Shown: one piece after another, positions 21,884 to 52,616 of the stretch
Numbering within the stretch: position 1 is the first letter of the stretch
How the letters are laid out: each line of letters opens with the position of its first letter
DNA from: Hemileia vastatrix
Lineage: Eukaryota; Basidiomycota; Pucciniomycetes; Pucciniales; Zaghouaniaceae
Direction: 5' to 3'
Length of the DNA: 64,000 bases
Assembly (NCBI GenBank): GCA_030280995.1
Contig: JASXTE010000001.1
Location: 27,659,106 to 27,723,105 of the forward strand
Position numbers and translations under genes: made by a program
Notes under the pieces: model-generated
The model's database searches: none
The model's input: the letters and a program-made list of their open reading frames with translations, nothing else
What the model was told of the DNA's origin: nothing

Positions 21884-23289
21884 TTATCACCCTTCCGTAA
21901 AGAGAGTTCAAACTTCTTCACTTCCAAATCATGTACCCTGTCATCCCTCCTTAAAGAGAGCTCTTATTTTTGCTTTTCAAACTTTAGAGTCTTTTTAGCA
22001 ACTTCCACTTGTTCTAGAGTGATAATAAATATTAACAAAAAGTAGAATAAAAGCAGATTAAAGTATTAAGAGGTTTGGTATCACTTACCAGCATCACGTT
22101 TCTCCAAAAATTCTTTGATAGAACAAAAGGGGCTTGAGATGAAGTATCACTTTTTCTTCTTCTTTGAGAGTGGAAATTTAGACTACTTGAAGCCCTTTGC
22201 TTTTTGTTCAAGGTCACATTTTCCTCCTCATCATATTCACTGGCTTCTGACTCAGTTGATTGTAGCTCCTGCATTTGTTCTTCAGCCTTTTTAGAAATAA
22301 GAAAATGTAAATAAAAAAAAGAATTGGTAAGATAAAAGAAAAAAACATACTTGAGTTAGATCAGGTTGGTTTATATTGCCATAAGGATCTATTGAAAAGA
22401 TATCTTGATTTGTGGAAGTTAAATGAGGGGAGGCTTGAGTAGAAGAAGAAGGAAAAATATTTCTTTTGACATCATGTTTGGAGATAGCATCTTCACCATC
22501 CAACATGTTTGCAGGATTAACATCAGCTCACTCTCCAAAAATAGCATCCATCTCTTTAAAGTAAGGACATAAAGAATCAAGTATATCATCTATGGATTTG
22601 ATGCTCTTACTGATATTGAGGTCAGTAATACCAAAACCAGTAGAAGATGAAAGAGTCTTTGCCTTCTTGTATTTGGCTCAATCATGCTTGAAGCGTTCAG
22701 ACATCTGTTTAGGTAAAAGATCTATCCTTCCCTTGGTCTTATTCCATAATTTGTTGGCCATTAGAAGATAACCATTAACTTTTGATGCTGGGGGCCATCC
22801 TACTTTAGTTGCATTTTTGGTACCAAAACAAGAATCATAGTTAGATTTAGCTTTCAGCCAGTTGATAAGAATGAGATGATCATCTTTTTTTAATTGAACG
22901 GTCTTTGATTTCTCAGCTGAGCAGGGGAAAGAGGGAGTAGTGCAATTTGAAGAACAACTGGGGGAAGGCTGCCTTTGAGAAGATCTATGATGACAGGGCA
23001 TGTTAAGATAATTGAAGATGAAAAGGAGCAAAAACAAGTAGATGAGATGGCAAGGTGTTTTGAATGGAAGAATAGACAGGATGAGATGAGAATGGGAGTG
23101 TGCAGCAAGGTAGAAGGCATATCCAGAGAGTAGTCAAAGATGTGGTTATGAATGAAAGTAGGCCAAGATGTGGTTATGAAAAATTAAGTAGAAAAATGTT
23201 GGATAAGAGGTCAACTTTGACACATAAAATGTCTAATAACCCAATTATTAGCAAAAATAATTGCAGAAGATAATTGGGGTATAAGGATT

Positions 23290-23338
23290 TTTATCCACAA
23301 TTAATTTAATTGCAGATCAGTCAACTTTGATACCCCCT
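23290..23338. repeat. right terminal inverted repeat of H0
   Basis: The end reads CAACTTTGATACCCCCT then ATT. The subterminal ATTAATTTAATTGCAGATC matches H1 and H2, but here GCGG is GCAG. Confidence 0.8.
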
Positions 23339-32560: not shown

Positions 32561-33120
32561 TGTCAGCCAGGCTATCTCAGGAGCCCAGTAAATTATATAA
32601 TAAATTAATGGAATCATTTAAGGGAATAATGCTATACATTTTATGTAGCTACAATAAAATATCTTATTGAATAAAATTATATAAATATTTTATAAGTAAA
32701 ATAATTATTATATTCATTGTTAAGAAAATTTTTATTGCATAAAAAGATATTATATTCTATAACATCATGGCGCATTTTGTATGTATTTAAAATTTCTAAA
32801 TTAATAAATTGATTATTTAAAGTTATATCATAAGTGTAATAATAAATTTAACTTATAATGTAATTACAATTTAAATGATAAAAATAATATAAACTAAATA
32901 CAACTTATCATATAATACTATCCATAAATATTGGGCGCTTCCTTGACCCTTAAGTGTGTCACTAAAATTACTAAATTAATTAAATTACTTATTTAATATG
33001 ATAAATTTAAATTCTCACTATAAATAAGTTTTTTTTAAATTAATTAATTGTTTCAATTAAATTACTTGAAATAGTTAAAAAAATTAATTTAATTTTCATT
33101 ATACTGAATTAAGATTTATT

Positions 33121-33260
33121 AGGGGGTATCAATGTTCAGGGATCCGCAATTAGGGATCAGGAATTTTTTTTCCCGGGATCAGACATTATTAATTGCGGAA
33201 GATTCTTATCCACTAGCCCCAGGGCTAGTGGATAAGAAATCCACGATAATGCATTATCCC
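33121..33260. repeat. left terminal and subterminal repeats of H1
   Basis: After AGGGGGTATCAATGTT come CCGCAATTAG and its inverse TAATTGCGG. Then a near-perfect palindrome (about 33205-33235) has 14-bp arms, TTATCCACTAGCCC and its complement. The matching end of H2 is its inverse at 46800-46926. Confidence 0.85.
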
Positions 33261-33500
33261 GCCTCTTATACCCCAATTTCCATTCCTAATTCCTGATCCC
33301 AAACTCATCTCATCCATGATGGATTTTTAAGAAAGTCACATGACTTATAATTGCTGATGCCATCCTTAAGTATTTCCTCACTCTATGCTACTTAATTTTG
33401 GTGGCGAACACTTAAGTTTTTTTTCTATCTACACACCCCAACTGCACATTTGGCAGTGAATTCCCACTTCCCTCATCACATAACCCTTTCACCGGCAACA

Positions 33501-34760
33501 ATGAAACACCTCTCTACTAGGAAGCTACTTCACTCAACAATGAATGCTATCACTTTTCTTTTAGTTCTTTACTATAAATCTGACTCTGATTTGGAAGATA
33601 CTTTAGCTTATATGTGTTTTCTTTCCAAAAAGCGTTACATCATCACCAGGGGGCCAAATCTTTATCATGATCCCCGATATGATCTGGCCTCCATTCTCAA
33701 CATTCCTCATTTAAACTTCACACAACTTTTTAGAACTTCTCCCGATTCTTTCTTCAAACTTTATCAACTCATCTCCAATCATCCTATCTTCCATAACAAT
33801 TCTCATAACAAACAGCGTAATCGTGCCATCCAACTTGCTGTTGCTCTATGTCGCTTTGGCTCAAATGGAAATGGTGCTGCCGTAAGACATTTGGATAATC
33901 TCTTTAACATAGGATATGGTACCGTGATATTATACACCAAGCGCTGTATGATTGCTATCCTTTCCCTCAAGTCTCAAACTCTTGCTTGGCCAACTCCAGA
34001 ACAGCAACTTGAATCCTCTCAAGTAATGCAAGCTGAAGGTTTCCCTGGCTGTATAGGTTTTGTTGATGGCACAACCATCCCTTTGAGTCAAAAGCCTGCT
34101 CATGATGGCAACCATTATTTTGATCGCAAAAAAAGGTTTCTTCAAAATCTTCTCCAAGTTCTTATCTTTCACAATCTAACTTTTAATCTTCTTTCTAGAT
34201 ACTCTATTGCCGTTCAACTTGTATGCGATGTCAATAAAAAATTTATTGCTTTTCACAGTGGCTGCCCTGGATCATGTCATGACTCTTCCGTCTTCCAAAG
34301 AATGAGGATTTCTCAATCCCCTGAATCATACTTTGACGAATCTCAGTACCTCCTTGCAGACTCAGCATATGCAAGTGGAAGGTACATTATACCTGCTTTC
34401 CGTGGTGCAACTTCAGAAAATGACCCCAAAACTAAATTTAATTATCACCTTGCACAATCAAGAGTACGAATCGAACATGCTATAGGTATTTTAAAGGGAC
34501 AATTTTCTAGTCTTCGGGAGCTCAGAATCCAATTTCAAAAAAAATTGGAGATCAAAACTGCAAATCATTGGATCTTGACTTGCGTAATACTCCACAATAT
34601 TCTAGCTGATTTAAAGGATGAGTGGAATGATCTTTATGAAGAAGAGGATCCTGAACCACCACTGGCACTCCCCTCCCTTGATTCACAAATCATTCAATCA
34701 ACCGGCATACGCCCCATTATAATGCCAATTACTCTTCAACATTTCTCTTCACCCTTTTAA
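33501..34760 (+). CDS. PIF/Harbinger DDE transposase, H1 (intact)
   Basis: The ATG at 33501 opens 419 residues (MKHLSTRKLL) without introns or stops. The fold is of the DDE_Tnp_4 type. The proposed catalytic residues are D189 in GFVDGTTIPLSQ, D261 in GSCHDSSVFQ and E325 in RIEHAIGILKG. A helical N-terminal region with an FRTSPDSFFKLYQLI helix may bind DNA. It cuts the element out and inserts it with a 3-bp duplication. It differs from the H2 copy at roughly twenty residues. The acidic C-terminus (YEEEDPEPPLA) is shared. An upstream in-frame TTG would extend it by 17 residues, but ATG is the likelier eukaryotic start. Confidence 0.95.
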   Translation: MKHLSTRKLLHSTMNAITFLLVLYYKSDSDLEDTLAYMCFLSKKRYIITRGPNLYHDPRYDLASILNIPHLNFTQLFRTSPDSFFKLYQLISNHPIFHNNSHNKQRNRAIQLAVALCRFGSNGNGAAVRHLDNLFNIGYGTVILYTKRCMIAILSLKSQTLAWPTPEQQLESSQVMQAEGFPGCIGFVDGTTIPLSQKPAHDGNHYFDRKKRFLQNLLQVLIFHNLTFNLLSRYSIAVQLVCDVNKKFIAFHSGCPGSCHDSSVFQRMRISQSPESYFDESQYLLADSAYASGRYIIPAFRGATSENDPKTKFNYHLAQSRVRIEHAIGILKGQFSSLRELRIQFQKKLEIKTANHWILTCVILHNILADLKDEWNDLYEEEDPEPPLALPSLDSQIIQSTGIRPIIMPITLQHFSSPF

Positions 34761-35109
34761 TTTTTAATTTTTATGTTTTCATACTTTCCAAATGTCCTCT
34801 TTGTGTACTTTAATCACTTGGTTTTGTATTTTGGTTTGTTGCATATTCATTTTTTTTTTTGAATTTACGGTGAATATCTTTTTTTTGGATGGCTCATTGG
34901 TTTTCTTTCACTTCCTCAACATGAAATCGCATATTTTCTTATATCGCATATTTTGTCAGTGATTTTTTTTTTCATTCATCACTCATATCCTTTTCATCCT
35001 CTCCTCAAACATCCCTCAAATATTTTGGTTGCATTTATTTTCTCAACTCAACTCACCAGGTAGGTCATTTTTTTTCTTTTTTCATGGTTTTTTATTTGCT
35101 AATCATGAT

Positions 35110-35140
<31 letters not shown>

Positions 35141-35278
35141 TGCTTTTTTTTTGCTTTTTTTTTTGGTTTTTTTGTTTTTTTTGTAAGTGCTTCTATTATT
35201 TTTGTTCTAGGGTAAACTAATTTTTGTTTTGCTTTTTTCTCTTTTTTATCTTTTTATTTTTTTGTTTTTTTTTCTCTC

Positions 35279-35990
35279 CTTCACCTCTCTTTATGATCCT
35301 CAAGCCCCCCCTTTTTCCCTCTCTTTACCTGTCTCTGACCCCCTTTTTACCCCCTTTTTAGCTGCCTCAAATCCCCCCTTTCCCCCCTCTTTAGGTCCCT
35401 CATCACCCCCTTTCCCCTCTTTTTAGGTGCTTCAATACTCCCCCCTTCCCCTCTCTTTATGTCCCTCAAACCCCCCCCTTCACCTCTCTTTTGGCGCCTC
35501 AAACCCCCCCTTCACCTCTCTTTACCCACATCAAACCCCCCCTTTCCCTCTCTTTAGGCGCCTCAAACACCCCCCCTTCCCCCCCTACCTAATCATTATA
35601 TCCTCCTCTACCCCCCCCCCCCCCCCCCTGTTTATTAACGAACGATCGTTATAGATCGTTTGTTAACATGGAGGTGGGGGGGGGGTGGGTGTTGGGGAAA
35701 GGGTTTGGGAGGGGGTAAGGAGATTGGAAGGGGGGGGTTTGAGGTACCTAAGGAGAGGGGAATGGGGGGGTTTGAGGTGCCTAAGGAGAGGGGAATGGGG
35801 GGGTTTGAGGTGCCTAAGGAGAGGGGAATGGGGGGGGGGGTTTGAGGGAGCTAAAGAGGGGGGAATGGGGGGGGTTTGAGGCAGCTAATGAGGGGGGAAG
35901 GAGGGTGATGAGGGACCTAAAGAGGGGGGAAAGGGGGGTATTTCAGGGGGATTTTGAGGCAGGCAAGGAGAGCATTTGAGGGGGAAAAGG
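35279..35990. repeat. large C-rich/G-rich imperfect palindrome in H1
   Basis: The left arm (about 35279-35630) repeats CTCTTTAGG and long C runs. The right arm (about 35660-35990) repeats GAGGTGCCTAAGGAGAGGGG and long G runs. The centre holds AACGATCGTT and AGATCGTTTGTTAAC. The arms are inverted copies and tandemly repetitive inside, so the region could fold into a long hairpin or G-quadruplexes. H2 and the other copies lack it. Open readings rich in proline or glycine here come from the repeats. Confidence 0.85.
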
Positions 35991-36049
35991 GGACTTTAAT
36001 GGGAGATAAAGATGGGTTACTAACTTTCAAATAAAGATACTAACAAATT

Positions 36050-36606
36050 TTTGTTTGTAATTTTGATTATTTTTTTTATTTTTTTTGCAGTAATATAGAA
36101 AAAAAAAATTTTTTTTTGCTGATAAGGACTGTCCCTCTTATTTACAAAACAAAAAAGGTTTATAATTTTATTTTTATTTTTTCTATCATTAATTTTTGTG
36201 ATTTTGATTTTAATTAAATAATTTTTTTAATTTTTAATTTTGATTTTACTGATTTTTTTTTTTTTTCATGATCTTGTGAGAAGGTTTTTAATAACCAATC
36301 TTCAGGTTCACTTTTAATTTTTTTTTTTTTTTTTTGTGTTTTAATTCTTACTGAAATTTTCTTTTTTGAATGAATTTAATTATTAATTTTTTTTAATAGG
36401 ATTTTGCTTTGATTGTGTTTTTTAAAATAAAACCTCAGGTTTTTTTTTTTTATAATTTTTTTTTTTGGAAAAATTTTTACTGATTTTTTGGTTTTTTTTT
36501 CAATTTTATTTTTAAAATAAAAAAACAGCTTTTTTTATTATTAGGTAGGAATTTTTTTTAAAAAAAATTTGAGTTAAAATTTTATTGACAATTAATTTTT
36601 TTTTCA
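36050..36606 (+). other. T-rich stretch before the Tet-like gene (possible 5' UTR intron)
   Basis: Almost all of it is poly(T) with short interruptions. It ends in TTTTTTTTCAG directly before the exon with the proposed start. A possible donor CAGGTAGGTC lies near 35058, so it may be part of a long leader intron. Confidence 0.4.
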
Positions 36607-36616
36607 GATCAAAAAA

Positions 36617-37865
36617 ATGTCTTCTTCTTCTGATTCACCCCTTACTTCTCTCTTATCTTCATCTTTATCTTCTTTATCATCTTCATCTTTATCATCTCTA
36701 TCATCTTCTTTGAAATCAACTCTATCATCTTCTTTGAAATCAACTTCCATACAATCATCTTCTAAATCATCAAAAAAATTAAAGATAATCAGTCTCATCA
36801 GAAGAAAAGATATTTAAAAAAAAAGTCTCTCTGCAAAAGTTATTTTTGTCATATCCCAAACATTTTTTTTTATAAAACTAAAGTAGATAAAAAAAATCAA
36901 TATCCGAAAAAATTACCAGAAGATATCAAATATCTAACAGAATTTGGAGATGATTGAGTTGTTGCAGTTATCAGCAATGCTTTTAAGCCTCAATTCATTT
37001 TGGAAGTTCATTCATTCGATGGTGTAAAAGATGAAGCTTTTAATCAACTATCCGATCTTATCATAACTCTTTATCAAATGGCTTTGGTTCGATTAACTAT
37101 AAGGAATAAGAATTTGTTGGGTGGTATCATGATTGGTTTTGGTTGGAGACCTGGTTTTGTCAAAGGATATTCTCTTGGTATGTCTAATAATTTTTGTTCC
37201 ATTCTTAATATCATTTCACTTATTTCAATTATATAGGTATATATTCATTGCTCAATAATATCACTAAAGCTCAAAAAGATGAAGATTTTCGCTTATGGGA
37301 CACTCTACCCTACTTTAATTCTTTTCTTGCTCTTCGACTCAAAAAGCTCTGTAATAAGGCATTTGAAAAAAATCATGACCTTGCAACCAAAGTTGGAATA
37401 CCAAATTGGTGTGACTCTGAATGGGAAGATATCAGCCACGAATATCTTTTATTTTCTAATGTTATTATCACTCATTCTGGATTCCACAATAGGATTCATA
37501 TCGATAGGAATGATGCCAATTTTCTTACTTTTGGTATATTCTCATATATCAAACCGATTACTGGGCAACCAATACCATCTCCAGCTAAAATCAAAGGACA
37601 TGGTTTATATTTTCCAGACCACCGGTGCATCATTGATTTTGGTTTGTGAAATGGTATCATCGAAACTATTTGGAATTCTTCTAAGGATAATCATCAAACG
37701 ACCAAAGCTCCTCCTGGTTTGAAATCCTGTCAAGATTTCACTCATTTCGGTTGCTCATTTCAAATCAGTAATAAGTTGATACAAAGAATCAATAAGGTAA
37801 AGAAAGAAGGTAAAGTTATTCGATTTAAAAAAACTTTATCTAGATCCAAAAAGTATGGGGATTAG
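36617..37865 (+). pseudogene. Tet/JBP-like 2OG-Fe(II) dioxygenase, H1 cargo (damaged)
   Basis: The encoded family oxidises a base, probably methylated cytosine or thymine, using iron and 2-oxoglutarate. The ATG at 36617 starts a serine-rich leader. The conserved domain begins near VVAVISNAFKPQFILEVHSF. A GT-AG intron (37178-37236) follows VKGYSLG. The iron-binding HxD is H-I-D in FHNRIHIDRND (about 37497-37505). The likely distal histidine is in DNHQTTK (about 37692). The conserved end reads FTHFGCSFQIS. The gene has stops near 36815, 36958 and 37649 (TGA after IIDFGL) and a frameshift between 36817 and 36960. It lies downstream of the transposase in the same direction. The call rests on the order of motifs that matches the rust Tet-like (2OG-FeII_Oxy_6) family. 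Confidence 0.82.
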
Positions 37866-37958
37866 AGTTGTCACCGAAAATTTTATATTTTTTCATAAAT
37901 TTTTAATAAATATTTTTTATATATCAATTTTCTCAAATAATGTGATGAGCCATCGACC

Positions 37959-38162
37959 TTGTTTTGTATAACAGGTAATCATGATAACATTTATTTGTTT
38001 CATGGGGTTCCTCTTTCCTATACCTGTAGAAAGTCCCAAACTTATGTATCTCGACTTGGTCTGCATTTTGGCTTGAGGGATTGTCATTACATTAAACTAG
38101 GGAAATTGATATATATTAGATATTTATTTAATAATTTATGTAATTATATTAAATTTAGATGA
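37959..38162 (+). other. conserved segment downstream of the Tet-like gene
   Basis: An open segment containing CITGNHDNIYLFHGVPLSYT is preceded by an acceptor-like TATAACAG. It recurs in N (53337-53540) and, decayed, in H2 and H3. Its conservation could reflect an extra exon or an untranslated region. No domain is recognised. Confidence 0.4.
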
Positions 38163-38600
38163 CTTCCACCCCTTACTTCAATAAAATGCAGGGGGGGGGT
38201 ATTGCCAAATTTTCAAATCTGACATGTGAAATTGATGACTTAGAAAAATTTTGGTGATACCCACCCCTTGCTTCAATAAAATGCAGGGGAGAGTATTGCC
38301 AATTTTTTTAAACAGATATAGAATTTTTTTGACTTGTAAATATTTTTGTGATACCCGTCCCTTACTTCAATAAAATCCATGGGGGGTTGTGCCAAAATTT
38401 TTTATAAGACTTGTGAAATTCTTGACATGTAAGAATTTTTAGGATACCGGTAAAATGCAGGGGGTAGTAAAGCCAAATTTTCATATAAAACTTTCAAGAT
38501 TCATGACATGAAAGAATTTTTGTGATACCCACCCCTTACTTCAAAAAAATCCAGGGGTGGGGGATTGTCAAATTTTCAAAGGAGACTTGAAAATTTTATT
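38161..38600. repeat. minisatellite between the converging genes of H1
   Basis: About six units of roughly 65-75 bases, each with CCACCCCTTACTTCAATAAA, ATGCAGGGG, TATTGCCAAATTTT and a TTTTGGTGATAC-like end. It sits between the dioxygenase and the 3' end of the Myb-like gene. Confidence 0.85.
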
Positions 38601-38714
38601 TAAAAAAAGAATATTTATCATTAAAATACGATATTTCAAGAAATACAGAAAATAATTGTAAAATTTATGTACAAATAAATATGAACACATGAAGTGTGAG
38701 AGAAATAAAAGAAA

Positions 38715-40112
38715 CTAGTCAACAAAAAATTTCATTAAACGTTCTATTTCTTCAACAGATTTGTTTGCTTTAATGCATTCGATCAAGAAATCTTTCTTTT
38801 TAGAACTTTCTTGGAGATCATGCTTATACTTCATCTGTTCCATTAAGTTTTGATGCTCGAGTGTTTTTTCCTTATTTTTGGATTTTTCAATACTAAGAGT
38901 TAACTCAAACTTCTTCTCCTCCAAATCTTGGGCCCTACCATCCTTCTGTAAAGAGAGCTCAAACTTCTTCTCCTCCAAATCTTGGATCCGATCATCCTTC
39001 CGTAAAGAGAGCTCATACTTCCTCTCTTCCAAATCTTGTACTCTGTCATCCCTCCTTAAAGAGAGCTCGTATTTCTTCTTTTCAAAGCTCAGTGTCTCTT
39101 TAGCAATTTCCACTTGTTCTAGAGTGAGAATAAAAATTAACATAAAGTAGAAGAAAAGCAGAGTAAAGTAATAAGAGGTATGATATCACTTACCAGCATC
39201 ACGTTTCTCTAAAAACTGTTCCATCGAAGAAAAAGGTGTTTGTGATGAAGTATCACTTTTTCGTCTTCTTTGGGAGAGGAAATTTAGACTAGTTGAAGCC
39301 CTTCTCTTTTTGTTCAACGTAGCATTTTCCTCCTCATCATTGTCACTAGCTTCAGACTCAGTTGATTGAGGATCCTGGGTTTGTTCATCAGCCTTTTAAG
39401 AAATAAGAAAAATATAAGTAAATAAAAAAATAGAATTGATAAGATAAAAGAAACAGACCTGAGTTAGATTGGGTTGGGTTAAATCGCCAATAGGATCAAT
39501 AGCAAAGCTATCTAGATTCGTAGAATTTAGAAGAGGGGAGGCTTGAGTGGAGGAAGAGGATGGGAAAAGATTTGCTTCGACATCATGTTCGGAGATAGGA
39601 TCTTCTCCATCCAACATGTTTACAGGATTAACATCGGCTCGCTCTCCAAAAATTGCATCCATCTCTTTAAAGTAAGGACATAAAGAATCAAGTTTATTGT
39701 CTATGGATTTTATACCCTTAGTTATATCAATGTCAGTAACCCCAAAACCAGTGGAAGATGAAAGAGCCTTTGCCTTCTTGTATTTTGCTCGATAATGCTT
39801 GAAGCGTTCAGACATCTGTTTAGGCAAAAGATCAATCCTTCCCTTGGTCTTATTGCGTAATTCATTTGCCATTAGAAGATAGCCATTAACTTTTGATGTG
39901 GGGGGCCGTCCTACTTTAGTGGCATACTCAGTACCAAAACAAGAATCATAGTTAGATTTGGTTTTCAGCCAATTGATAAGAATGAGATGATCATCTTTTT
40001 TTAATTGAACAGTCTTTGATTTCTTGGCTGAGCGGGGAAAAGAGGAAGTAGTGGGAATTGAAGAACAACTGGGTGATAGCTGCCTTTGAGAAGATCTAGG
40101 ATGACGAGGCAT
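38715..40112 (-). CDS. Myb/SANT-like Harbinger partner protein, H1 (intact, three exons)
   Basis: Exons on the minus strand are 40112-39459, 39392-39194 and 39118-38715. The introns (66 and 75 nt) are GT-AG, and the joined reading is 1257 nt, 418 residues, from MPRHPRSSQR to the stop at 38715. The N-terminal third is a Myb/SANT or trihelix-like DNA-binding region (KKDDHLILINWLKTKSNYDS, then GRIDLLPKQMSERFKHYRAK). An acidic, serine-rich middle carries a basic KKRRAS stretch. The last exon has four copies of a 16-residue charged repeat with core QDLEEKKFELSL, probably a coiled coil. In known PIF/Harbinger elements a Myb-like second protein helps transposase bind the ends and enter the nucleus. 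An in-frame upstream ATG at 40148 would add a hydrophobic stretch and is less likely. Confidence 0.9.
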
Positions 40113-40359
40113 GTTATTATAAATGAAGATGAAAAGGAGCAGAAACAAGCAGATGAGATAGCGAGATGAAAAGGAGAAGAATCAAATAGATGAAATGGGG
40201 AGAAATTCTGAGCGGATAGAATGAACAGGATGGGATGAGAATGGAAGTGCGCAGCAAGGTAGAAGGCTGGGATATCCAGAAAGTTGTCCAAGATGTGGTT
40301 ATGGAAAATTGAGTAAATAAATGTCGGATAAGAGGTGAACATTGACACGTAAAGTGTCT

Positions 40360-40463
40360 AATAACCCAATTATTAGCAAAAATAATTGCGGATGATAATT
40401 GGGGTATGCAGATTATTTTCCGCAATTAATTTAATTGTGGATCGGTCAACATTGATACCCCCT
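40360..40463. repeat. right terminal and subterminal repeats of H1
   Basis: The end reads CAACATTGATACCCCCT, preceded by TTCCGCAATTAATTTAATTG and by AATTGCGGATGATAATT. It is the inverse of the H2 left end at 40816. Confidence 0.85.
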
Positions 40464-40815
40464 ATTATATACATTAAAGCATGAAAATAATTCTGTTTTT
40501 TTAATTAAACCCTTTTCAGCTATATGTACTACCTGTTTTAGATTTTCTTTCTCATAGTTCTCAGGTTTCATACTTATGTAGTTATTTATTATATTAAATA
40601 TTTTTTTGGGACTTTATGGTGGGAGAAGTTGTTATTTATTCACGGGTTTACTTTATTGGTTCAATTTTCCTTTTATTTTGTATGTTTTAATTAAATCCCT
40701 TTAATTGTTTGTTTCACATTAATATTATTTTTGTATATACAATTGAGGCGCCTAAGAGGTATTCTTACCTATAAAAGGGCTTTGGAATTCCCCTTTGGAA
40801 GTTATCATTTAAATT

Positions 40816-40900
40816 AGGGGGTATCAATGTTCAGGGATCAGCAATTAAATTAATTGCGGATAAAAATCCTTATACCCCAATTATCTTCCGCAATTATTTT
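40816..40900. repeat. left terminal and subterminal repeats of H2
   Basis: The end AGGGGGTATCAATGTTCAGG is followed by AGCAATTAAATTAATTGCGG and TATCTTCCGCAATTATTTTT. Confidence 0.83.
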
Positions 40901-41181
40901 TGCTAATAATTGGGTTATTAGACACTTTACGTGTCAATGTTCACCTCTTATCCAACATTTTTTTACTCAATTTTTCATATCCACATCTTGGACAACCTTC
41001 TGTCATAACCACATCTTGACCTACTTTCTGCCATAACCACATCTTGGACTACTCCCTGGATATGCCTTCTACCTTGCTGCACACTTCCATTCTCATCCCA
41101 TCCAGTTCATTCTATCCGCTCAGAGCCCCTCACCATCTCATCTGCTTGTTTCTGCTCCTTTTCATCTTCATTTATAATAAC

Positions 41182-42504
41182 ATGCCTCGTCATCCTAGAT
41201 CTTCTCAAAGGCAGCCATCACCCAGTTGTTCTTCAATTCCCACTACTTCCTCTTTCCCCCGCTCAGCCAAGAAATCAAAGACCATTCAATTAAAAAAAGA
41301 TGACCATCTCATTCTTATCAACTGGCTGAAAACCAAATCTAACTATGATTCTTGTTTTGGTACTGAGTATGCCACTAAAGTAGGACGGCCCCCTGCATCA
41401 AAAGTTAATGGCTATCTTCTAATGGCAAATGAATTACGCACTAGGACCAAGGGAAGGATTGATCTTTTGCCTAAACAGATGTCTGAACGCTTCAAGCATT
41501 ACCGAGCAAAATACAAGAAGGCAAAGGCTCTTTCATCTTCCACTGGTTTTGGGATTACCGACAACAATATAACTAAGGGCATAAAATCCATAGACAATAA
41601 ACTTGATTCTTTATGTCCTTACTTTAAAGAGATGGATGCAATTTTTGGAGAGCAAGCCGATGTTAATCCTGTAAACATGTTGGATGGAGAAGATCCTATC
41701 TCCGAACATGATGTTGAAGCAAATCTTTTCCCATCCTCTTCCTCCACTCAAGCCTCCCCTCATTTGAATGAGACATATCTAGATAGCTTTTCTGTAGATC
41801 CTATAGATGATTTAACCCAACCAAATATAACTCAGGTCTGTTTCTTTTTTCTTTTCTCTTATCTTTTCTATTTTTTATTTACTTATCTTTTTCTTATTTC
41901 TTAAAAGGCTGATGAACAAACCCAGGATCCTCAATCAACTGAGTCTGAAGCTAGTGACAATGATGAGGAGGAAAATGCTACATTGAACAAAAAGCAAAGG
42001 GCTTCAAGTAGTCAAAATTTCCTCTCCCAAAGAAGACGAAAAAGTGATACTTCATCACAAACACCTTTTTCTTCGATGGAACAGTTTTTAGAGAAACGTG
42101 ATGCTGGTAAGTGATATCATACCTCTTATCACTTTACACTGCTTTTCTTCTACTTTATGTTGATTTTTATTCTCACTCTAGAACAAGTGGAAATTTCTAA
42201 AGAGACTCTAAGCTTTGAAAAGAAGAAATACGAGCTCTCTTTAAGGAGGGATGACAGAGTACAAGATTTGGAAGAGAGGAAGTACGAGCTCTCCTTACGA
42301 AAGGATGATTGGGTCCAAGATTTGGAGGAGAAGAAGTTTGAGTTAACTCTTAGTATTGAAAAATCCAAAAAAGAGGAAAAAACACTTGAGCATCAAAACT
42401 TAATGGAACAGATGAAGTATAAGCATGATCTTCAAGAAAGTTCTAAAAAGAAAGATTTCTTGATTGAATGCATTAAAGCAAACAAATCTGTTGAAGAAAT
42501 ATAA
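41182..42504 (+). CDS. Myb/SANT-like Harbinger partner protein, H2 (shortened by nine residues)
   Basis: Exons are 41182-41835, 41908-42106 and 42182-42504. The GT-AG introns are 72 and 75 nt. The joined reading is 1176 nt, 391 residues, closely matching the H1 copy in the DNA-binding region. A TAA after VEEI removes the last residues (ERLMKFFVD in H1). The coiled-coil exon has three 16-residue repeats against four in H1. The protein may still work, as the lost end is short. It runs toward the minus-strand transposase of the same element. Confidence 0.88.
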
Positions 42505-42659
42505 CATTTAATGAAATTTTTTGTTGACTAGTTTCTTTTATTTCTTTCACACTTCATGTGTTCATATTTATTTGTACATAAATTTTACAATTATTTTCTG
42601 TATTTCTTGAAATTTCGTATTTTAATGTTAAATATTCTTTTTTTAAATAAAATTTTCAA

Positions 42660-43105
42660 GTCTCCTTTGAAAATTTGACAATCTCCCACCCCTGGATTTT
42701 TTTGAAGTAAGGGGTGGGTATCACAAAAATTCTTTCATGTCATGAATCTTGAAAGTCTTATATGAAAATTTGGCTTTACTACCCCCTGCATTTTACCGGT
42801 ATCCCCGAAAGTCTTACAAGTCAAGAATTTCACAAGTCTTATAAGAAATTTTGGCAATACCCCCCCTGGATTTTATTGAAGTAAGGGACAGGTATCACCA
42901 AAAAAATTTCACCAAAAAATTTACAAGTCAAAAAAATTCTATATCTGTTTTAAATAATTGGCAATACTCTCCCCTGCATTTTATTGAAGCAAGGGGTGGA
43001 TATCACCAAAATTTTTATAAGTCATCAATTTCACATGTCAGATTTGAAAATTTGGCAATACCCCCCCCCATGCATTTTATTGAAGTAAGGGGTGGAAGTC
43101 ATCTA
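42660..43105. repeat. minisatellite between the converging genes of H2
   Basis: Units of about 65-75 bases contain TTTGGCAATACCCCCC, TGCATTTTATTGAAG and TAAGGGGTGGGTATCACC, the inverse of the H1 array. Units vary in their C run and linker. Confidence 0.85.
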
Positions 43106-43395
43106 AATTTAATATTATTACATAAATTATTAAATAAATATCTAATATATATCAATTTCCCTAGTTTAAAGTAATGAAAATCCCTCTAGCGAAAATGCAG
43201 ACCAAGTCTAGAAACAAAAGTTTGGGACTTTCCACAGGTATAGGCTAGAGGAACCCCATGAAACAAATAAATGTTTTCATGATTACCATTTATACAACAC
43301 AAGGTTGTTGGCCCATTACTTTTGTTGAGGAAATTGATACATAAAAAATATTTATTAAAAATTTATGAAAAAATATAAAATTTTCAATGACAACT

Positions 43396-44030
43396 CTAAT
43401 CCCCATACTTTTTGGATCTAAATAAAGTTTTTTTAAATCGATTAACTTTACCTTCTTTCTTTACCTTATTGATTCTATGAATCAACTTATGACTGATTTG
43501 AAATGAGCAACCAAAAGGTGTTAAATCTTGACAGGATTCCAAACCAGGAGGAGCTTTGGTCGTTTGATGATTATCCTTAGAAGAACTCCAAATAGTTTCG
43601 ATGATACCATTTCACAAACCAAAATCAATGATGCACCGGTGGTCTGGAAAATATAAACCATGTCCTTTGATTTTAGCTGGAGATGGTATTGGTTGCCCAG
43701 TAATCGGTTTGATATATGAGAATATACTAAAAGTAAGAAAATTGGCATCATTCCTATCGATATGAATCCTATTGTGGAATCCAGAATGAGTGATAATAAC
43801 ATTAGAGAATAAAAGATATTTGTGGGTGATATCTTCCCATTCGGAGTCACACCAATTCGGTATTCCAACTTTGGTTGCAAGTTCATGATTTTCTTCAAAT
43901 GCTTTATTACAGAGCTTTTTGAGTCAAAAAGCAAGAAAAGAGTTAAAGGAAGGTAGAGTGTCCCATAAGCGAAAATCTTCATCTTTTTGAGCTTTAGTGA
44001 TATTCTTGACCAACAAATATATGCCCATCT
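43396..44030 (-). pseudogene. Tet/JBP-like 2OG-Fe(II) dioxygenase, H2 (exon 2 only)
   Basis: It aligns with exon 2 of the H1 gene: NITKAQKDEDFRLWDTLPSF, VGIPNWCDSEWEDI, FHNRIHIDRND with the iron-binding HxD, KGHGLYFPDHRCIIDFGL and DNHQTTKAPPGLESCQD. The same TGA after IIDFGL is present as in H1, and there is a further stop after FLAF. No exon 1 is found upstream; instead a repeated module (44105-44460) abuts the intron remnant. It cannot make an enzyme. Confidence 0.8.
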
Positions 44031-44104
44031 AATTGAAATGCCTAGATAATAATCATATAAGAGTTTCAGAATCCTTATCCTCTAAATATGCAATATAAAA
44101 ATGT

Positions 44105-44460
44105 GAAATAAGACAAGTGAAATTTGGAAAAAAGGCTCAACTTCAAAGGTCAAAATCTCAGCAACCACTGAACCTAGTTCAAACCTGTTTGTGGGAAATG
44201 AAAGATATGCTTTAGTAGAATCTTCAGTTAAAGGACATGTGATTTAAATAAACCTAACCCTAATTTGTTACATAAAAAAATGAAATAAAAATTTAAATTG
44301 GGAAAAAAAAGGCTCAACTTTAACGGTCAATATCTCAGCAACCACTGAATCAAATTAAAATCTGTTTGTGGGAAATGAAAAGTAGCCTTCAGGAGAATCT
44401 TCAGTAAAAAGAACATTATATTTGAATAAACCTAACCCTAATTCCGAGTCTGATTTTCAA
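44105..44460. repeat. duplicated ~170-190-bp module upstream of the H2 Tet-like segment
   Basis: Two units share AAAGGCTCAACTT, TCTCAGCAACCACTGAA, GTTTGTGGGAAATGAAA and GAATCTTCAGT. The module recurs in H3 (50660-50830 and 54680-55030) and N (52200-52530). Confidence 0.8.
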
Positions 44461-45286
44461 AATTTTACAAAAACTTGAAAAATGGTAATGAAGATGAGAT
44501 CAAAAGGAGTTTTATAAGTTCACCGTTATCCAGATAAGAGTCATAAATATATTTAAGTATAAACTTTTCATAAAAGGAATGAGATATCATATAGGCATGA
44601 AAAAAAGGAGATGAAACTTACCTTGATTGAAAAGTAGGAAAAATAGAGTGAGAAAGATTGATGTTGGAATTGTGGGGAAATTGAATATGGAGTAAGTGAA
44701 ATGCATAAAGAATGTGCAATGTATGTGTTTCAATGAAATGGAGCCAAAAAAAAGTGAAATAAGGGAAAGGGGGGATAATGACAATGCCAAGGAGGGATGA
44801 AGAGTAGGGTGATGGAGCTAAAAAAGAAAGTAAAGAGGGAGAGAAAAAAAAGGTTAATTATACAATTGAAATCCAAAATAACCACTTACAAAAAAAATTT
44901 AGATAAAAAAATAAAATAAACAGAAAAAAACAAAAAAAAATATAATTAGTAATCAAAAAATCAAAAAAAATGAATAAAATGACTTACCTGGAGAGATGAG
45001 ATGACAAAATGAATGAAACCAAATTGTTTAAGGGATGTTGGAGGAGAATAGGAAAAGGATATGAGGGATGAATGAAAAAAAAAATCACTGACAAAATATG
45101 CAATTTCAGAAAATATGCGATTTCATGTTGAGCTGGTGAAAGAAAACCAATGAGCCATCCAAAAAAAAGATATTCACCGTAAATTCAAAAAAAAAAATGA
45201 ATATGCAACAAACCAAAATACAAAACCAAGTGATTAAAGTACACAAAGAGGACATTTGGAAAGTATGAAAACATAAAAATAAAAAA
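44461..45286 (-). other. H2 spacer between transposase and Tet-like segment
   Basis: It matches the segment after the H1 transposase (34761-35060) and the captured piece in N (about 51385-52070). A donor-like CCAGGTAAGTCA occurs near 44985 on the minus strand, so part of it may be a leader exon. No protein domain is recognised. Confidence 0.5.
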
Positions 45287-46546
45287 TTAAAAGGGTGAAG
45301 AGAAATGTTGAAGAGTAATTGGCATTATAATGTGGCGTATGCTGGTTGATTGAATGATTTGTGAATCAAGGGAGTGGAGTGCAAGTGGTGGTTCAGGATC
45401 CTCTTCTTCATAAAGATCATTCCACTCATCCTTTAAATCAGCTAGAATATTGTGGAGTATTATGCAAGTCAAGATCCAATGATTTGCAGTTTTGATCTCC
45501 AATTTTTTTTGAAATTGGATTCTGAGCTCCCGAAGACTAGAAAATCGTCCCTCTAAAATACCTATAGCATGTTCAATTCGTACTCTTGATTGTGCAAGGT
45601 GATAATTAAATTTAGTTTTGGGGTCATTTTCTGAAGTTGCACCACGTAAAGCAGGTATAATGTACTTTCCACTTGCATATGCTGAGTCTGCAAGGAGGTA
45701 CTGAGATTCGTCAAAGTATGATTCAGGGGATTGAGAAATCCTCATTCTTTGGAAGACGGAAGAGTCATGACATGATCCAGGGCAGCCACTGTGAAAAGCA
45801 ATAAATTTTTTATTGACATCGCATACAAGTTGAACAGCAATAGAGTATCTAGAAAGAAGATTAAAAGTTAGATTGTGAAAGATGAGAACTTGGAGAAGAT
45901 TTTGAAGAAACCTTTTTTTGCGATCAAAATAATGGTTGCCATCATGAGCAGGCTTTTGACTCAAAGGGATGGTTGTGCCATCAACAAAACCTATACAGCC
46001 AGGGAAACCTTCAGCTTGCATTACTTGAGAGGATTCAAGTCGCTGTTCTGGAGTTGGCCAAGCAAGAGTTTGAGACTTGTGGGAAAGGATAGCAATCATA
46101 CAGCGCTTGGTGTATAATATCACGGTACCATATCCTATGTTAAAGAGACTATCCAAACGTCTTACAGCAGCACCATTTCCATTTGAGCCAAAGCGACATA
46201 GAGCAACAGCAAGTTGGATGGCAGGATTATGCTGTTTGTTATGAGAATTGTTATGGAAGATAGGATGATTGGAGATGAGTTGATAAAGTTTGAAGAAAGA
46301 ATCAGGAGAAGTTCTAAAAAGTTGTGTGAAGTTTAAATGAGGAATGTTGAGAATGGAGGCCAGATCATATCGGGGATCATGATAAAGATTTGGCCCCCTG
46401 GTGATGATGTAACACTTTTTGGAAAGAAAACACATATAAGCTAAAGCATCTTCCAAATCAGAGTCAGATTTATAGTAGAGAACTAAAAGTAAAGTGATGG
46501 CATTAATAGTGGAGTGAAGTAGCTGTCTAGTAGAGAGGTGTTTCAT
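45287..46546 (-). CDS. PIF/Harbinger DDE transposase, H2 (intact)
   Basis: The ATG at 46546 opens 419 residues without introns or stops, as in H1. The catalytic residues lie in GFVDGTTIPLSQ, GSCHDSSVFQ and RIEHAIGILEG. Substitutions against H1 are scattered, for example LEGR against LKGQ and SHKS against SLKS near the catalytic core. The upstream sequence contains the same subterminal palindrome as H1. With a nearly complete Myb-like partner in the same element, this copy may be active. Confidence 0.95.
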   Translation of the reverse strand: MKHLSTRQLLHSTINAITLLLVLYYKSDSDLEDALAYMCFLSKKCYIITRGPNLYHDPRYDLASILNIPHLNFTQLFRTSPDSFFKLYQLISNHPIFHNNSHNKQHNPAIQLAVALCRFGSNGNGAAVRRLDSLFNIGYGTVILYTKRCMIAILSHKSQTLAWPTPEQRLESSQVMQAEGFPGCIGFVDGTTIPLSQKPAHDGNHYFDRKKRFLQNLLQVLIFHNLTFNLLSRYSIAVQLVCDVNKKFIAFHSGCPGSCHDSSVFQRMRISQSPESYFDESQYLLADSAYASGKYIIPALRGATSENDPKTKFNYHLAQSRVRIEHAIGILEGRFSSLRELRIQFQKKLEIKTANHWILTCIILHNILADLKDEWNDLYEEEDPEPPLALHSLDSQIIQSTSIRHIIMPITLQHFSSPF

Positions 46547-46799
46547 TGTTGCCGTTGGAAGGGTTATGTGATGAGGGAAGTGGGAATTCACCGCCAAATG
46601 TGCAGTTGGGGTGTGTAGATAGAAAAAAAACTTAAGTTTTTGCCACCAAAATTAAGTAGCATAGAGTGAGGAAAGACTTAAGGATGGCATCAGCAATTAT
46701 GAGTCATGTGACTTTCTTGCAAATCCATCATGGATGAGATGAGTTTGGGATCAGGAATTAGGAATGGAAATTGGGGTATAAGAGGCAGGATAATGCATT

Positions 46800-46926
46800 A
46801 TTGTGGATTCCTTATCCACTAGCCCCGGGGCTAGTGGATAAGAATCTTCCGCAATTAATAATGTCTGATCCCAGAAAAAAAAATTCCTGATCCCTAATTG
46901 CGGATCCCTGAACATTGATACCCCCT
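46800..46926. repeat. right terminal and subterminal repeats of H2
   Basis: A perfect 30-bp palindrome (about 46809-46838) with 15-bp arms TTATCCACTAGCCCC and complement lies inside. It is followed by TTCCGCAATTAATAATG, TAATTGCGGATCCCTG and the end AACATTGATACCCCCT. Confidence 0.88.
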
Positions 46927-47570: not shown

Positions 47571-47874
47571 AGGGTGTATAAATGTTGACTGATCCACAAT
47601 TAAATTAATTGCAGATAAAAATCATTATACCCCAATTATCTTCCGCAATTATTTTTTCTAATAATTGGTTTATTAGACCTTTTACATGTCAATTTTCACC
47701 TATATCTGACATTTTTATCCTCAATTTTTCATAAAAACAGCTTGGACAACTTGTCGGATGTGCCAGCCTACCTACCTTGCTGCACACTCCCATGCTATCT
47801 ATTCATTTCTGTTCAAAACCCCTCCCCATCTCATCTGCTTTTTTCTTCTCCTTTTCATCTTCAAATATCTCAAC

Positions 47875-49263
47875 ATGCCCAATCATCATAGATCTTCTCA
47901 AAGGCAGCCTTTTCCTAGTTGTTCTTCAATTCCTATTACTCCCTCTTTCCCCCGCTCAGCTGAGAAATCAAAGACTTTTAAAGTAAAAAAATATGATCAT
48001 CTCATACTTATCAACTTCTGAAAAAAAAACTAATTATGATTCTTGTTTTGGTACTGAGAATGCAACTAAAGTAGGATGGCCCTCTGCATCAAAAGTTAAT
48101 GGTAATCTTCTAATGGCCAACGGATTACAGAATAAGACCATGGGAAGGATAGATCTTTTACCTAAACAGATGTCTGAATGCTTCAAGCATTATCAATCCA
48201 AATACAAGAAGGTAAAGACTCTTTCATCTTCTAATGGTTTTGGTATTACTGAACTCAATATTAGTAAGAGAATAAAATCCATAGATAATAAACTTGATTC
48301 TTTATGTCCTTACTTTAAGGAGATTAATTCTATTTTTGGAGAGAAAGCTGATGTTAATCCTGCCAACATGTTGGATGGTGAATATGCTATCTCCAAACAT
48401 GATGTAAAAAAATCTTTTCCAATCCTCTGCCTCCACTCAAGCCTCCCCTGTTCTAAATTTAGCAAATCCAGATAGATTTCCAATAGATCCTTATGGTGAT
48501 ATAAACCAATATGACCCCACTCCAGTAAGTTTTTATCTCTTGTCTAGTTCTTTCATTTTTTTTATTTCTAAAAAGGCTAATGAAAAAACCCAGGATCCTC
48601 AAGAAAGTGAGTCTGAAGCTAGCATCAATGATGAAGAGGAAAATTTTACCTCCAAAAAAAAGTTAAGACCATCAACAACTTTGAATTTCAACAGTAATAG
48701 AAAGCAAAACAGAGATAGTCTTTCCCAAACCCCTTTTTCTTCCATTGATGATTTTCTGGAGAAACATGAATCTGATAAGTGATAGCATACCTCTTAATAA
48801 TTAAGTGAGCTTTTCTTTTCTTTTGTTAATATTCCTTTTCACTCTAGATAAAGTTGAAGTTGCAAGATATACTCTCAACTTTCAAAAGAAACAATACAAG
48901 CTCTCTTTATGAAAGGATGATAGGGTACAAGACTTGGAGGAGAAGAAAGATGAGCTTTCTATACAGAGGGATGGGAGGGTACAAGACTTGGAGGAGAAGA
49001 AATTTGAGCTTTTTTTAAAGAGGAATGAGAGGGCACATGACTTGGAGGTGAATAAATTTGAGATAAAGAAAGGGGAGAAGGCTCTAGAGTACAATTTCCT
49101 ATTGGATCAAATGAAACTCAAGTATCAACTTGAAGATGGCTTGAAAAAGAAAGATTTCTTGAGAGAATGTGTTAAAGCTAATAAATCTATTGAGGAAATT
49201 GAACACTTATTGAAAATTTTTGATAACCAGTTTTTTTTTATTATGTTTAGAAAGTTTTCTTGA
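47875..49263 (+). pseudogene. Myb/SANT-like Harbinger partner gene, H3 (degenerate)
   Basis: The ATG at 47875 begins MPNHHRSSQRQPFPSCSS. A frame change near 48020 falls in the DNA-binding region, which then continues as NYDSCFGTENATKVG and GRIDLLPKQMSECFKHYQSK. Exon 2 (about 48574-48779) and exon 3 (about 48850-49263) follow in the order of the intact genes. Exon 3 keeps three or four charged repeats (VQDLEEKKFELFLKRNER) and CVKANKSIEEIEHLLKIF. A further stop near 48910 interrupts exon 3. Confidence 0.83.
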
Positions 49264-49794
49264 TAGCATGCATTAAATCTAATAATCAATCTTTGGCACA
49301 CACTCTTCACTGAGATGTGAAACATTTTATTGCAACATTTAAGATTATTTGTTTGTTTGGTTAAATAGATTTTGTTTTACTTCTTTTTGGTGATAATTTC
49401 ATATGTTCTGACTTTTTAAAGGTCTTGATTCTAGATGATTTTTTTTTTCAAAAATTTGAAAAAACTCATACATTTTTTATTTTTGTTATGATTAAAGAAT
49501 TTTTCTTAATTTATTTTTCTTACTCTTAAAAGTTAAACTTGTTTCAGAAAAAGAAATCTTATGAAAAAACTGCAGAACCTCAACTACTTTTTGAGGAAAA
49601 GAAGTGGTTTCATTCACAATCAAAGTAAGAATAATGTTTAGAAATTGAGAAAGATTGTTTAGATTTGGAGAGGGAGAAGGTTAGGATTCAAAAAGAGAAT
49701 GATGAAAAATTCAAAAATTATCTATTTTAATTGGAAAATGCCAAAATTCAGTTACAAGCCAATGAATTAAAAATGATTTATGTCAAAAAAATTT
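49264..49794. other. H3 spacer after the Myb-like gene
   Basis: AT-rich; a purine-rich stretch (49550-49780) could be a decayed extension of the coiled-coil exon. Nothing else is recognised. Confidence 0.4.
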
Positions 49795-49935
49795 TTTTGG
49801 CAATACCCTCCCCTGCTATTTACCATAACAGGGGGTGGGGATCACCATTTTTTTCTCTAAGTCAGAAAAAAAATCTATGACAAAAAAAATGGCAATACCC
49901 TCCCCTGTGTTTTCTTGAAGTAGGGGCATATATTG
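49795..49935. repeat. minisatellite remnant, H3
   Basis: Two decayed units with GGCAATACCCTCCCCTG and GGTGGGGATCACC. Confidence 0.75.
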
Positions 49936-50389
49936 CCAAAGTTTATGTTCATTGCATAAATTAGCATGTAAAGAAGTCTTATAAGATAATTTAAAAAACC
50001 TAAATTAATGACAATTCAAGTAAAAATGAGAGCGGAAGTTGTCTGTGACCAAAGTCAATGAAATTAAACACAAATGTATACATGAACTTCATGAGAAAAT
50101 CAAATTTCCTTATGATTACTGTTATACAACACATGGCCAATGGCTCATTAATTTAGGTAAGTAGAGTATCATATATGACTTTTGAAATTTTAATTTGTGA
50201 AATAAAAATAAAAGTTTACTACCTATATTACACCTCATACTTTTTCTTTCTATTTAATGTTTTTTGTTTTACCTCAACTTTTTCTCATACCTTATCAATA
50301 CTATTGACCAGCTCCGTATTTATTTGATAAGAACAGCCAAAGTGAGTAAAGTCTTCACAGGAATTTTAAGGTTTTTTTATATTTGTTAA

Positions 50390-50640
50390 ATTTACCTTCT
50401 TTTTTTACCTTGTTTATTCTGTGGATTAATTTTTGACTGATTTGAAGTGAACATCCAAAATGTGTGAACTGTTGAGAAGATTCCAAGCCAGGTGGAGCTT
50501 TGGTTGTTTGGTGATTAACTTGAGAAACTTTTTTTAAGTAAAGAATAGATTCCTATGGAAATAAAATGAGTGACATGATTTTAAGAATGAAACATATATT
50601 ATCAGACATACCAAGAGAAAAGCCTTTAACAAATCCCAAT
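50390..50640 (-). pseudogene. Tet/JBP-like dioxygenase remnant, H3
   Basis: Minus-strand pieces read GFVKGFSLG followed by a donor-like GTATGTCTG (50600-50630). Then, after a large deletion of the iron-binding core, NHQTTKAPPGLESSQQFTHF appears. The family is recognised by alignment with H1; the enzyme is lost. Confidence 0.7.
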
Positions 50641-50659
50641 CTAAACATGAAATAAATTA

Positions 50660-50830
50660 AATGAAATTTAGAAAAAAGGCTCAACTTTAAGGGTCAATAT
50701 CTCAGCAATAAATAAGAAAAATTCAAATCCATTTATGGGAAATGAAAGATAGGCTTCAGAAGAATCTTCAGCTAAAAGAACATAAGATTTGATCAAACCT
50801 AACCCTAATTTTGACTCTGATTTTCATATT
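50660..50830. repeat. copy of the ~170-190-bp module, H3 left
   Basis: It contains AAAGGCTCAACTT, AATATCTCAGCAA, GAATCTTCAGC and AAACCTAACCCTAATTT, as in H2 (44105-44460). Confidence 0.75.
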
Positions 50831-50953
50831 TGCACAAAACTTTGAAAATTGATGATGAAAATTCCAACAAGATGGAGATATAAGCCTAGATAATCATCAG
50901 ATAAGAGTTTCAGAAGCCTTTTTCTCTAATTATGCAATATAAAAAGATTAAAT

Positions 50954-51010
50954 AGGGGGTGTCAGTTCTGGCAAATCCGCACTTAACTTAAGTGCGGATT
51001 TCAAACCAAA
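50954..51010. repeat. left terminal repeat of N
   Basis: After AGGGGGTGTCAGTTCTGGCA an AAATCCGCACTTAA and its inverse TTAAGTGCGGATTT form a subterminal palindrome. A further GTCAGTTATGACCTCAAATC and a GTCAGTTCTGACCTCAAATC copy follow near 51057 and 51297. Confidence 0.85.
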
Positions 51011-52530: not shown

Positions 52531-52616
52531 GAATTTCACTTGTCTTATTTCACATTTTTATATTGCATATTTAGAGGATAAGGATTCTGAAACTCTTATA
52601 TGATTATTATCTAGGC

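What the first reader, a model, noticed from the sequence alone, without database searches (positions are those of the whole stretch)
33121..40463. A Harbinger transposon that carries a Tet/JBP-like DNA dioxygenase gene
Seen: between exact inverted ends with ATT duplications lie a transposase, a Tet-like gene with HxD and distal-H motifs, and a Myb-like gene. H2 repeats the plan, and H3 and N hold pieces. Known: fungal TET/JBP expansions have been linked to KDZ-type DNA transposons. A PIF/Harbinger carrier with its own Myb-like partner would be a different vehicle. Inference: the element may once have used base oxidation to escape silencing by DNA methylation.
Basis: partly seen in the sequence, partly recalled or inferred. 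Interest (0 to 1): 0.92.

Follow-up and report, generated by a model that had tools for sequence, protein, structure and literature searches.

The report
Rust-fungus Harbinger transposon carrying TET gene
A very numerous jumping gene in a rust fungus carries, beside its own transposase, a gene for a TET-type enzyme that probably rewrites methylated DNA; such carriers were reported in December 2025, and this one looks like a distinct version with different insertion footprints.

Summary
33121-40463 is a complete PIF/Harbinger-type element: 16-bp exact inverted ends, ATT duplications, a DDE_Tnp_4 transposase, a TET/JBP-type (PF20515) gene and, on the other strand, a weakly Myb/SANT-like gene. 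H1's own TET copy is broken, but one family member (L028) has both TET exons open, and a sister family (B, L027) has an open TET core in the same position. Between families TET evolved under purifying selection (dN/dS 0.08-0.14). Genome-wide 43-mer counts: 4490 left ends, 2433 transposases, 1124 TET exon 1, 3104 TET exon 2, 3100 Myb-like. TET is a frequent, not universal cargo. The central idea is not new: Kojima (December 2025, PMC12730594) described TET-carrying Harbinger families ('PHISTA') in six rust species. Ours differs in 3-bp AWT duplications (PHISTA: TA) and a Myb/SANT-like third protein (PHISTA: none). Copies show strong C-to-T decay at CpG, highest at TCG, which fits methylation-linked silencing; no clear protection of TET-bearing copies was seen. 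Verdict: new variant of a known kind; anti-silencing likely but untested.

The parts
33121..40463 (+). complete family-A Harbinger-type element H1, 7343 bp
   Evidence: ends and flanks; 12 other family-A copies end at homologous positions, L011's right end altered
33118..33120 (.). left target-site duplication ATT
40464..40466 (.). right target-site duplication ATT
33121..33136 (+). left terminal inverted repeat AGGGGGTATCAATGTT
40448..40463 (-). right terminal inverted repeat, exact over 16 bp
33501..34760 (+). transposase ORF, 419 aa, uninterrupted in H1; probable in-frame intron about 34136-34198 (inferred from GT..AG borders and comparison with Puccinia relatives P0001, P0002)
   Evidence: PF13359 6.5e-26; rust relatives 46-52% identical over most of the length
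35304..35584 (.). C-rich tandem array, about 33-bp units; left break of the cassette replacement in L009/L013 lies here
   Evidence: comparison with L009/L013
35690..35960 (.). G-rich tandem array, inverted relative to the C-rich array
36617..37865 (+). TET/JBP-type dioxygenase gene, two exons (about 36617-37177 and 37237-37865, splice sites inferred); interrupted in H1
   Evidence: PF20515 3.6e-23 on the exon 2 piece; sister copies
38151..38610 (.). array of about 95-bp repeats; right break of the cassette replacement in L009/L013
38718..40112 (-). third gene: Myb/SANT-like exon (39459-40112), middle exon and coiled-coil-like exon (splicing inferred)
   Evidence: PF13837 sub-threshold in 4 of 5 members; ORFs
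40816..46926 (-). H2, 6111-bp sister element with TET exon 1 replaced
47571..56455 (-). H3, family-A element interrupted by a composite with B-type ends (50954-54662) that holds a TET exon 2 piece
12414..23338 (+). older TET-less sister (transposase 87%, Myb-like part 83% nucleotide identity to H1) interrupted by a Copia element; its left end was not found with up to 4 mismatches in the 18-bp end

Best explanation
H1 is one copy of a large Harbinger-type DNA transposon family (A) of a rust fungus that has long carried a TET/JBP-type dioxygenase as a third gene, as has its sister family (B). Shown: the anatomy, the 3-bp AWT duplications, the repeated genomic association of TET with these elements, past purifying selection on TET, and CpG/TCG-centred decay of the copies. 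Inferred: the transposase and the Myb/SANT-like partner do the moving, as in other Harbingers; the dioxygenase oxidises 5-methylcytosine (or a related base) on element DNA, loosening methylation-based silencing long enough for expression and transposition, probably in trans on sister and non-autonomous copies as well. The TET cassette lies between repeat arrays and has been lost or replaced repeatedly, so many copies travel without it.
For: PF13359 and PF20515 matches. Same gene order in family A and in B elements L022 and L027. Among exact matches on contig C2 and part of C26, 26 of 31 TET exon 1 hits lie 2.8-4.4 kb downstream of a transposase hit on the same strand, and 14 of 20 lie 3.8-4.6 kb from a left end, 0.2 expected by chance. 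Between-family TET exon 2 dN 0.13-0.16, dS 1.1-1.5, ratio 0.08-0.14 over about 200 codons. L028 has both TET exons open with HID and the distal His; L027 has one open frame over PF20515 8-211. C-to-T at TCG 0.156 per site and copy against 0.001-0.017 outside CpG, the context that PMC12730594 reports from other work for Pucciniomycotina repeats (section read).
Against: No activity, expression or methylation data. TET exon 1 is rarer than the transposase (1124 against 2433). Per-copy CpG transitions: TET-full copies 6, 10, 8, 11, 18; TET-less copies 4, 9, 7; exon-1-less copies 23, 18, 13, 13, 15. The exon-1-less copies carry more, but the TET-less ones carry no excess, so cis protection is not shown; age and shared descent confound this. 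Within family A most dN/dS values are about 0.3-0.5, as expected for decaying copies. Short B2 elements, apparently abundant, have neither TET nor Myb-like match. 2 of the 10 sampled open exon-2 copies lack the HID/HTD motif, and L017 and L023 have HxN.
Confidence: 0.6

Rival explanations
1. The TET gene is passive cargo: captured once, copied with the element and decaying, with no role in transposition.
For: TET is broken in H1 and in the other four full-length family-A copies first read (L011, L014, L015 by stops or frame breaks; L017 also loses the HxD Asp), and in 9 of 10 further copies chosen for an open exon 2 exon 1 is interrupted. TET-less and exon-1-less subfamilies with nearly the same transposase multiplied too. 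More transposases (2433) than TET exon 1 (1124) genome-wide.
Against: Strong past purifying selection between families A and B; an uninterrupted two-exon copy in A and an open TET core in B.
Confidence: 0.25
2. H1 is simply another PHISTA family of Kojima 2025, and the reported TA duplication is another reading of the same kind of ends.
For: Same host order and the same kind of three-gene content. In every scripted pair but L011, TA also flanks GGGGG..CCCCC, so a TA reading fits those pairs taken singly.
Against: Flanks match over 3 bp in 23 of 24 scripted pairs; L011, whose end was mis-set in the script, reads ATA/ATA by eye, where TA fails. A paralogous empty site fits 3 bp better than TA against L022, L023 and H2, equally against H1 and H3. 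The third protein has a weak Myb/SANT-like signal. The transposase tree puts H1 in a rust clade without P. graminis or P. triticina members among the 29 rows used.
Confidence: 0.3
3. The dioxygenase is a host gene that the element happened to engulf, serving the host.
For: Other PF20515 frames abound in this genome (150 of 10849 first-look candidates scored, all 150 over the cut-off).
Against: Exact exon-1 hits recur at similar spacing from element ends and transposase.
Confidence: 0.05

Closest known systems
TET+ Harbinger families 'PHISTA' (Kojima 2025, PMC12730594)
   Same: rust hosts, Harbinger-superfamily DDE transposase, TET/JBP gene, three genes
   Different: PHISTA: TA duplications and no Myb/SANT in the third protein; here 3-bp AWT duplications and a Myb/SANT-like third protein. 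The host here is unidentified, so it could be one of the six listed species; the best long transposase match is 52% and the highest 63% over a quarter of the query (best 120 of 151 hits listed)
Nuwa / canonical PIF-Harbinger elements
   Same: 3-bp duplications, DDE transposase plus Myb/SANT-like protein (as described in PMC12730594 and PMC9179366)
   Different: no dioxygenase; canonical target TWA (recalled) against AWT here
TET+ KDZ elements (Dileera, Kyakuja, Zisupton)
   Same: TET/JBP cargo in fungal DNA transposons
   Different: unrelated transposase group; 8-bp duplications for the Dileera element named in PMC12730594
HarbingerS (SET-domain carriers; title seen in the reference list of PMC12730594)
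   Same: Harbinger carrying a chromatin-modifying enzyme
   Different: a histone methyltransferase rather than a DNA dioxygenase

Membership tests
PIF/Harbinger superfamily | DDE_Tnp_4-type transposase | tested here: met
   PF13359 91.3 bits, cut-off 24.8; tree with rust DDE_Tnp_4 proteins
PIF/Harbinger superfamily | terminal inverted repeats with 3-bp duplications | tested here: met
   23 of 24 scripted pairs (22 of 23, plus L027); L011 ATA/ATA by eye; empty site
PIF/Harbinger superfamily | canonical TWA target (recalled) | tested here: not met
   target is AWT, once ATA
PIF/Harbinger superfamily | Myb/SANT-like second protein | tested here: inconclusive
   PF13837 in 4 of 5 members, best 0.00099, below the curated cut-off; P0121 no match at 0.1; structure model poor
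PHISTA | TA target-site duplication | tested here: not met
PHISTA | third protein without Myb/SANT | tested here: inconclusive
   weak Myb/SANT signal
PHISTA | groups with PHISTA transposases in a tree | not testable with these tools
   Repbase sequences and the paper's supplements were not available here
TET/JBP dioxygenases | PF20515 / Tet-like 2OG-Fe(II) oxygenase profile | tested here: met
   L011 exon 2 positions 49-211 of 211, 4.4e-29; the place of L027 8-211
TET/JBP dioxygenases | HxD and distal His | tested here: met
   8 of 10 copies HID with distal His; L027 HTD with distal His; lost in L017 and L023 (HxN) and not seen in L033, L034
TET/JBP dioxygenases | oxidation of methylated bases | not testable with these tools
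   needs biochemistry
KDZ transposons | KDZ transposase | tested here: not met
   the transposase matches only PF13359, PF01609 and PF04827 at E 1 or better

The most novel reading that the evidence does not exclude
A Harbinger lineage with 3-bp duplications and a Myb/SANT-like partner, separate from PHISTA, acquired the TET gene by its own route. Within it the TET gene sits in an exchangeable cassette between repeat arrays that has moved between families A and B, so that an anti-silencing gene is hot-swapped among the thousands of copies that help fill this large genome.
Probability: 0.3. Interest if true: 0.65.

Novelty: new variant of a known kind. Interest (0 to 1): 0.45.

Why it matters
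Rust genomes are rich in transposons although DNMT1 and DNMT5 genes were found in all 12 Pucciniomycotina genomes of one study (passages of PMC12210899). An abundant element that often carries a TET-type gene, with open and broken or missing versions side by side in one genome, gives a natural comparison for asking whether such genes let transposons escape methylation. It also questions whether TA duplications and absence of Myb/SANT hold for all TET-carrying Harbingers.

Tried and rejected
TA duplication: rejected because 3-bp flanks agree in 23 of 24 scripted pairs, L011 read by eye fits only 3 bp, and the nested insertion in L010 fits a 3-bp empty site better against three of five relatives and equally against two.

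TET as a transposon inside H1 with its own ends: none of the 25 longest of 196 inverted pairs brackets it.

Structure predictions of the Myb-like exon and TET exon 2 were too poor to use (mean pLDDT 45 and 37), so no fold search was run. PDB sequence searches gave only weak matches to designed proteins or nothing. Protein searches with the third protein and with TET exon 2 returned one relative each (P0121, P0122), so TET could not be placed in the published PU clusters.

Cis protection by TET: per-copy CpG transitions do not settle it.

Rows left out and biases: the family-A copies came from the 150 best-scored of 7944 first-look transposase candidates. One search compared 83 of the 150 transposase places with all 150 TET places and found 2 pairs, one of which became L027; the 67 omitted are 94.0-bit rows. 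Searches used only exact matches on contig C2 and, for the first two, part of C26. One search looked at 10 of 25 places that I counted by eye as 218-aa open exon-2 frames. The 35 of 150 stop-free TET cores is also a count by eye. One search's script took a wrong right end for L011.
Full report
Setting. The window lies at G000:C26:27659106-27723105 of a 747.6-Mb genome in 791 contigs; its G+C is 31.8%. The transposase's best named relatives are rust fungi: Puccinia coronata 52%, P. striiformis 51%, Austropuccinia psidii 46%. The species was not identified. Size and G+C resemble coffee rust (recalled, not tested).

Anatomy of H1. The ends are AGGGGGTATCAATGTT, exact over 16 bp, at 33121 and 40463, flanked by ATT. 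Inside are a 419-aa transposase frame with DDE_Tnp_4 at 6.5e-26, C-rich and G-rich tandem arrays in inverted arrangement, a two-exon TET/JBP-type gene, an array of about 95-bp repeats, and on the other strand a gene whose first exon has a weak Myb/SANT signal (PF13837, E 0.004-0.006, below the cut-off) and whose last exon looks coiled-coil (by eye). In H1 the TET gene is interrupted by two in-frame stops and a frame break near its start.

Target-site duplication. For 23 insertions with both ends located, the script found identical 3-bp flanks in 22, always ATT or AAT; L027 adds AAT/AAT. In the exception, L011, the script used a wrong right end; read by eye it is ATA/ATA. TA also flanks GGGGG..CCCCC in the others, but not in L011. 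The insertion in L010 lies inside a TET gene copy. Its flanks joined with one AAT removed score better than the TA reading against L022 (222 to 216), L023 (229 to 223) and H2 (228 to 225), and equally against H1 and H3. I conclude a 3-bp AWT duplication.

Copies. Eighteen stretches of about 10 kb around well-scoring transposase hits were read. Of the 13 family-A copies among them (L009-L021), 4 have full-length TET (L011, L014, L015, L017), 4 have TET exon 2 with another segment in place of exon 1 (L012, L018, L020, L021), 3 have no TET inside the element (L009, L010, L013), and 2 showed only the left half (L016, L019). H1 and H2 in the window are of the first and second kind. L009 and L013 share one noncoding replacement segment with breaks in the C-rich array and in the right-hand repeats; the TET-less copy at 12.4-23.3 kb has frames resembling it. 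I infer exchange or loss of an internal cassette between repeats.

Second family. Family B (ends AGGGGGTGTCAGTTCTGG, transposase 57-58% identical) has the same order of transposase, TET and Myb-like gene in L022 and L027; L023 shows transposase and TET, its right end and Myb-like gene not found in the stretch. L027's Myb-like gene has a stop. Short B2 elements of 2.8-3.5 kb (L002, L024, L025, L026; 4 of 4 with both ends located) have a transposase but no TET or Myb-like match.

Open TET genes. In L028 exon 1 is open from the start codon to the inferred splice site and exon 2 is open to the end, with HID and the distal His; this is 1 of 10 places, all chosen for an open exon 2. L027 carries one open 347-aa frame, reading through the inferred intron, that covers PF20515 8-211 with HTD and the distal His; its 5' start is not shown intact. 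By eye, 35 of the 150 scored PF20515 places cover at least 8-210 with no stop; the position of two of them beside a transposase was noticed, and one (L027) was read. L017 and L023 have Asn for the Asp, and L033 and L034 did not show the HID/HTD motif.

Selection. Between A and B copies TET exon 2 gives dN 0.13-0.16 and dS 1.1-1.5 over about 200 codons, ratio 0.08-0.14. Transposase and Myb-like genes are more diverged (dN about 0.28-0.36 and 0.33), with dS saturated or nearly so. TET may therefore have passed between A and B after they split, but the contrast is modest and could reflect stronger constraint. Within A, most ratios of about 0.3-0.5 fit mixed decay; pairs with dS of 0.08 or less were not printed.

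Genome-wide counts. With 43-mers at up to 3 mismatches (reversed-pattern control 0 each): A left end 4490, transposase 2433, TET exon 1 1124, TET exon 2 3104, Myb-like 3100. The 43-mers differ from the four B loci checked by at least 5 mismatches. Among exact matches on C2 and part of C26, 26 of 90 transposase hits have TET exon 1 downstream, and 26 of 31 TET exon 1 hits are so placed. On C2, 4 of 26 exact exon-2 hits lie about 2.8 kb from a left end with no exact transposase hit, pointing to transposase-less derivatives.

Mutation. Comparing 13 copies with their majority base, C-to-T per site and copy is 0.156 at TCG, 0.089 at CCG, 0.074 at ACG and 0.060 at GCG, against 0.001-0.017 elsewhere. 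PMC12730594 (section read) cites TCG hypermutation in Pucciniomycotina repeats and links TET cargo to countering it. This suggests that the family is or was methylated. It does not show that TET protects its own copy: CpG transitions number 6-18 in TET-full copies, 13-23 in exon-1-less copies and 4-9 in TET-less copies.

Literature. What I saw: PMC12730594 outline, passages, sections 3.1 and 3.4, part 1 of the Discussion and the figure legends; passages of PMC12210899 and PMC9179366; search listings otherwise. Kojima describes 15 TET+ Harbinger families in six rust species, with TA duplications and no Myb/SANT in the third protein, and names the lineage PHISTA. Iyer et al. 2014 is known to me only through that paper and recall. 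The listings of searches (20 of 69 papers shown; 8 of 8) showed no other title about TET-bearing Harbingers; the library is partial.

Mechanism. Most likely the Myb/SANT-like protein and the transposase move the element, as in other Harbingers (passages of PMC9179366), and the TET enzyme oxidises methylated bases on element DNA to ease silencing, probably in trans given how many copies lack it. The last step is inference.

Judgement. The finding is real and well read by the first stage. Its headline novelty was taken by a December 2025 paper. What remains new here, as far as these searches go, is the variant: 3-bp AWT duplications, a Myb/SANT-like partner, thousands of copies, replaceable internal cassettes, and open TET genes or cores in two sister families.

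Noticed in passing
62732-62931; L020:2974-3174: About 200-bp non-autonomous elements with family-A-like ends and ATT duplications, probably moved by the A transposase.
   Followed up: partly
L002, L024, L025, L026: Short transposase-only B2 elements; the many 94.0-bit rows suggest numerous young copies, not examined further.
   Followed up: partly
window 50954-54662: Composite with B-type ends holding an inverted family-A internal segment with TET exon 2, inserted in H3.
   Followed up: partly
L010:4440-9478: A family-A element inserted in a TET gene copy of another element.
   Followed up: yes
genome-wide: Many other PF20515 frames, including a recurring 393-aa open frame, suggest further TET families in this genome.
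   Followed up: no
24008-24664 minus strand: Ribosomal protein L2 C-terminal domain (PF03947, 3.8e-35), probably a host gene.
   Followed up: no
35304-35960; L027:2670-3114: C-rich then G-rich tandem arrays in inverted order between transposase and TET in both families; function unknown.
   Followed up: partly
29689-30163: Long hexanucleotide-like repeat open in several frames.
   Followed up: no
477-1721, 4669-10538 and 17684-21771: Reverse-transcriptase fragments of Gypsy- and Copia-type elements; strong CpG depletion at 4.6-10.5 kb and 17.6-21.8 kb.
   Followed up: no
59525-60414 minus strand: Fragment of a more distant Harbinger-type transposase, 33-48% identical.
   Followed up: no
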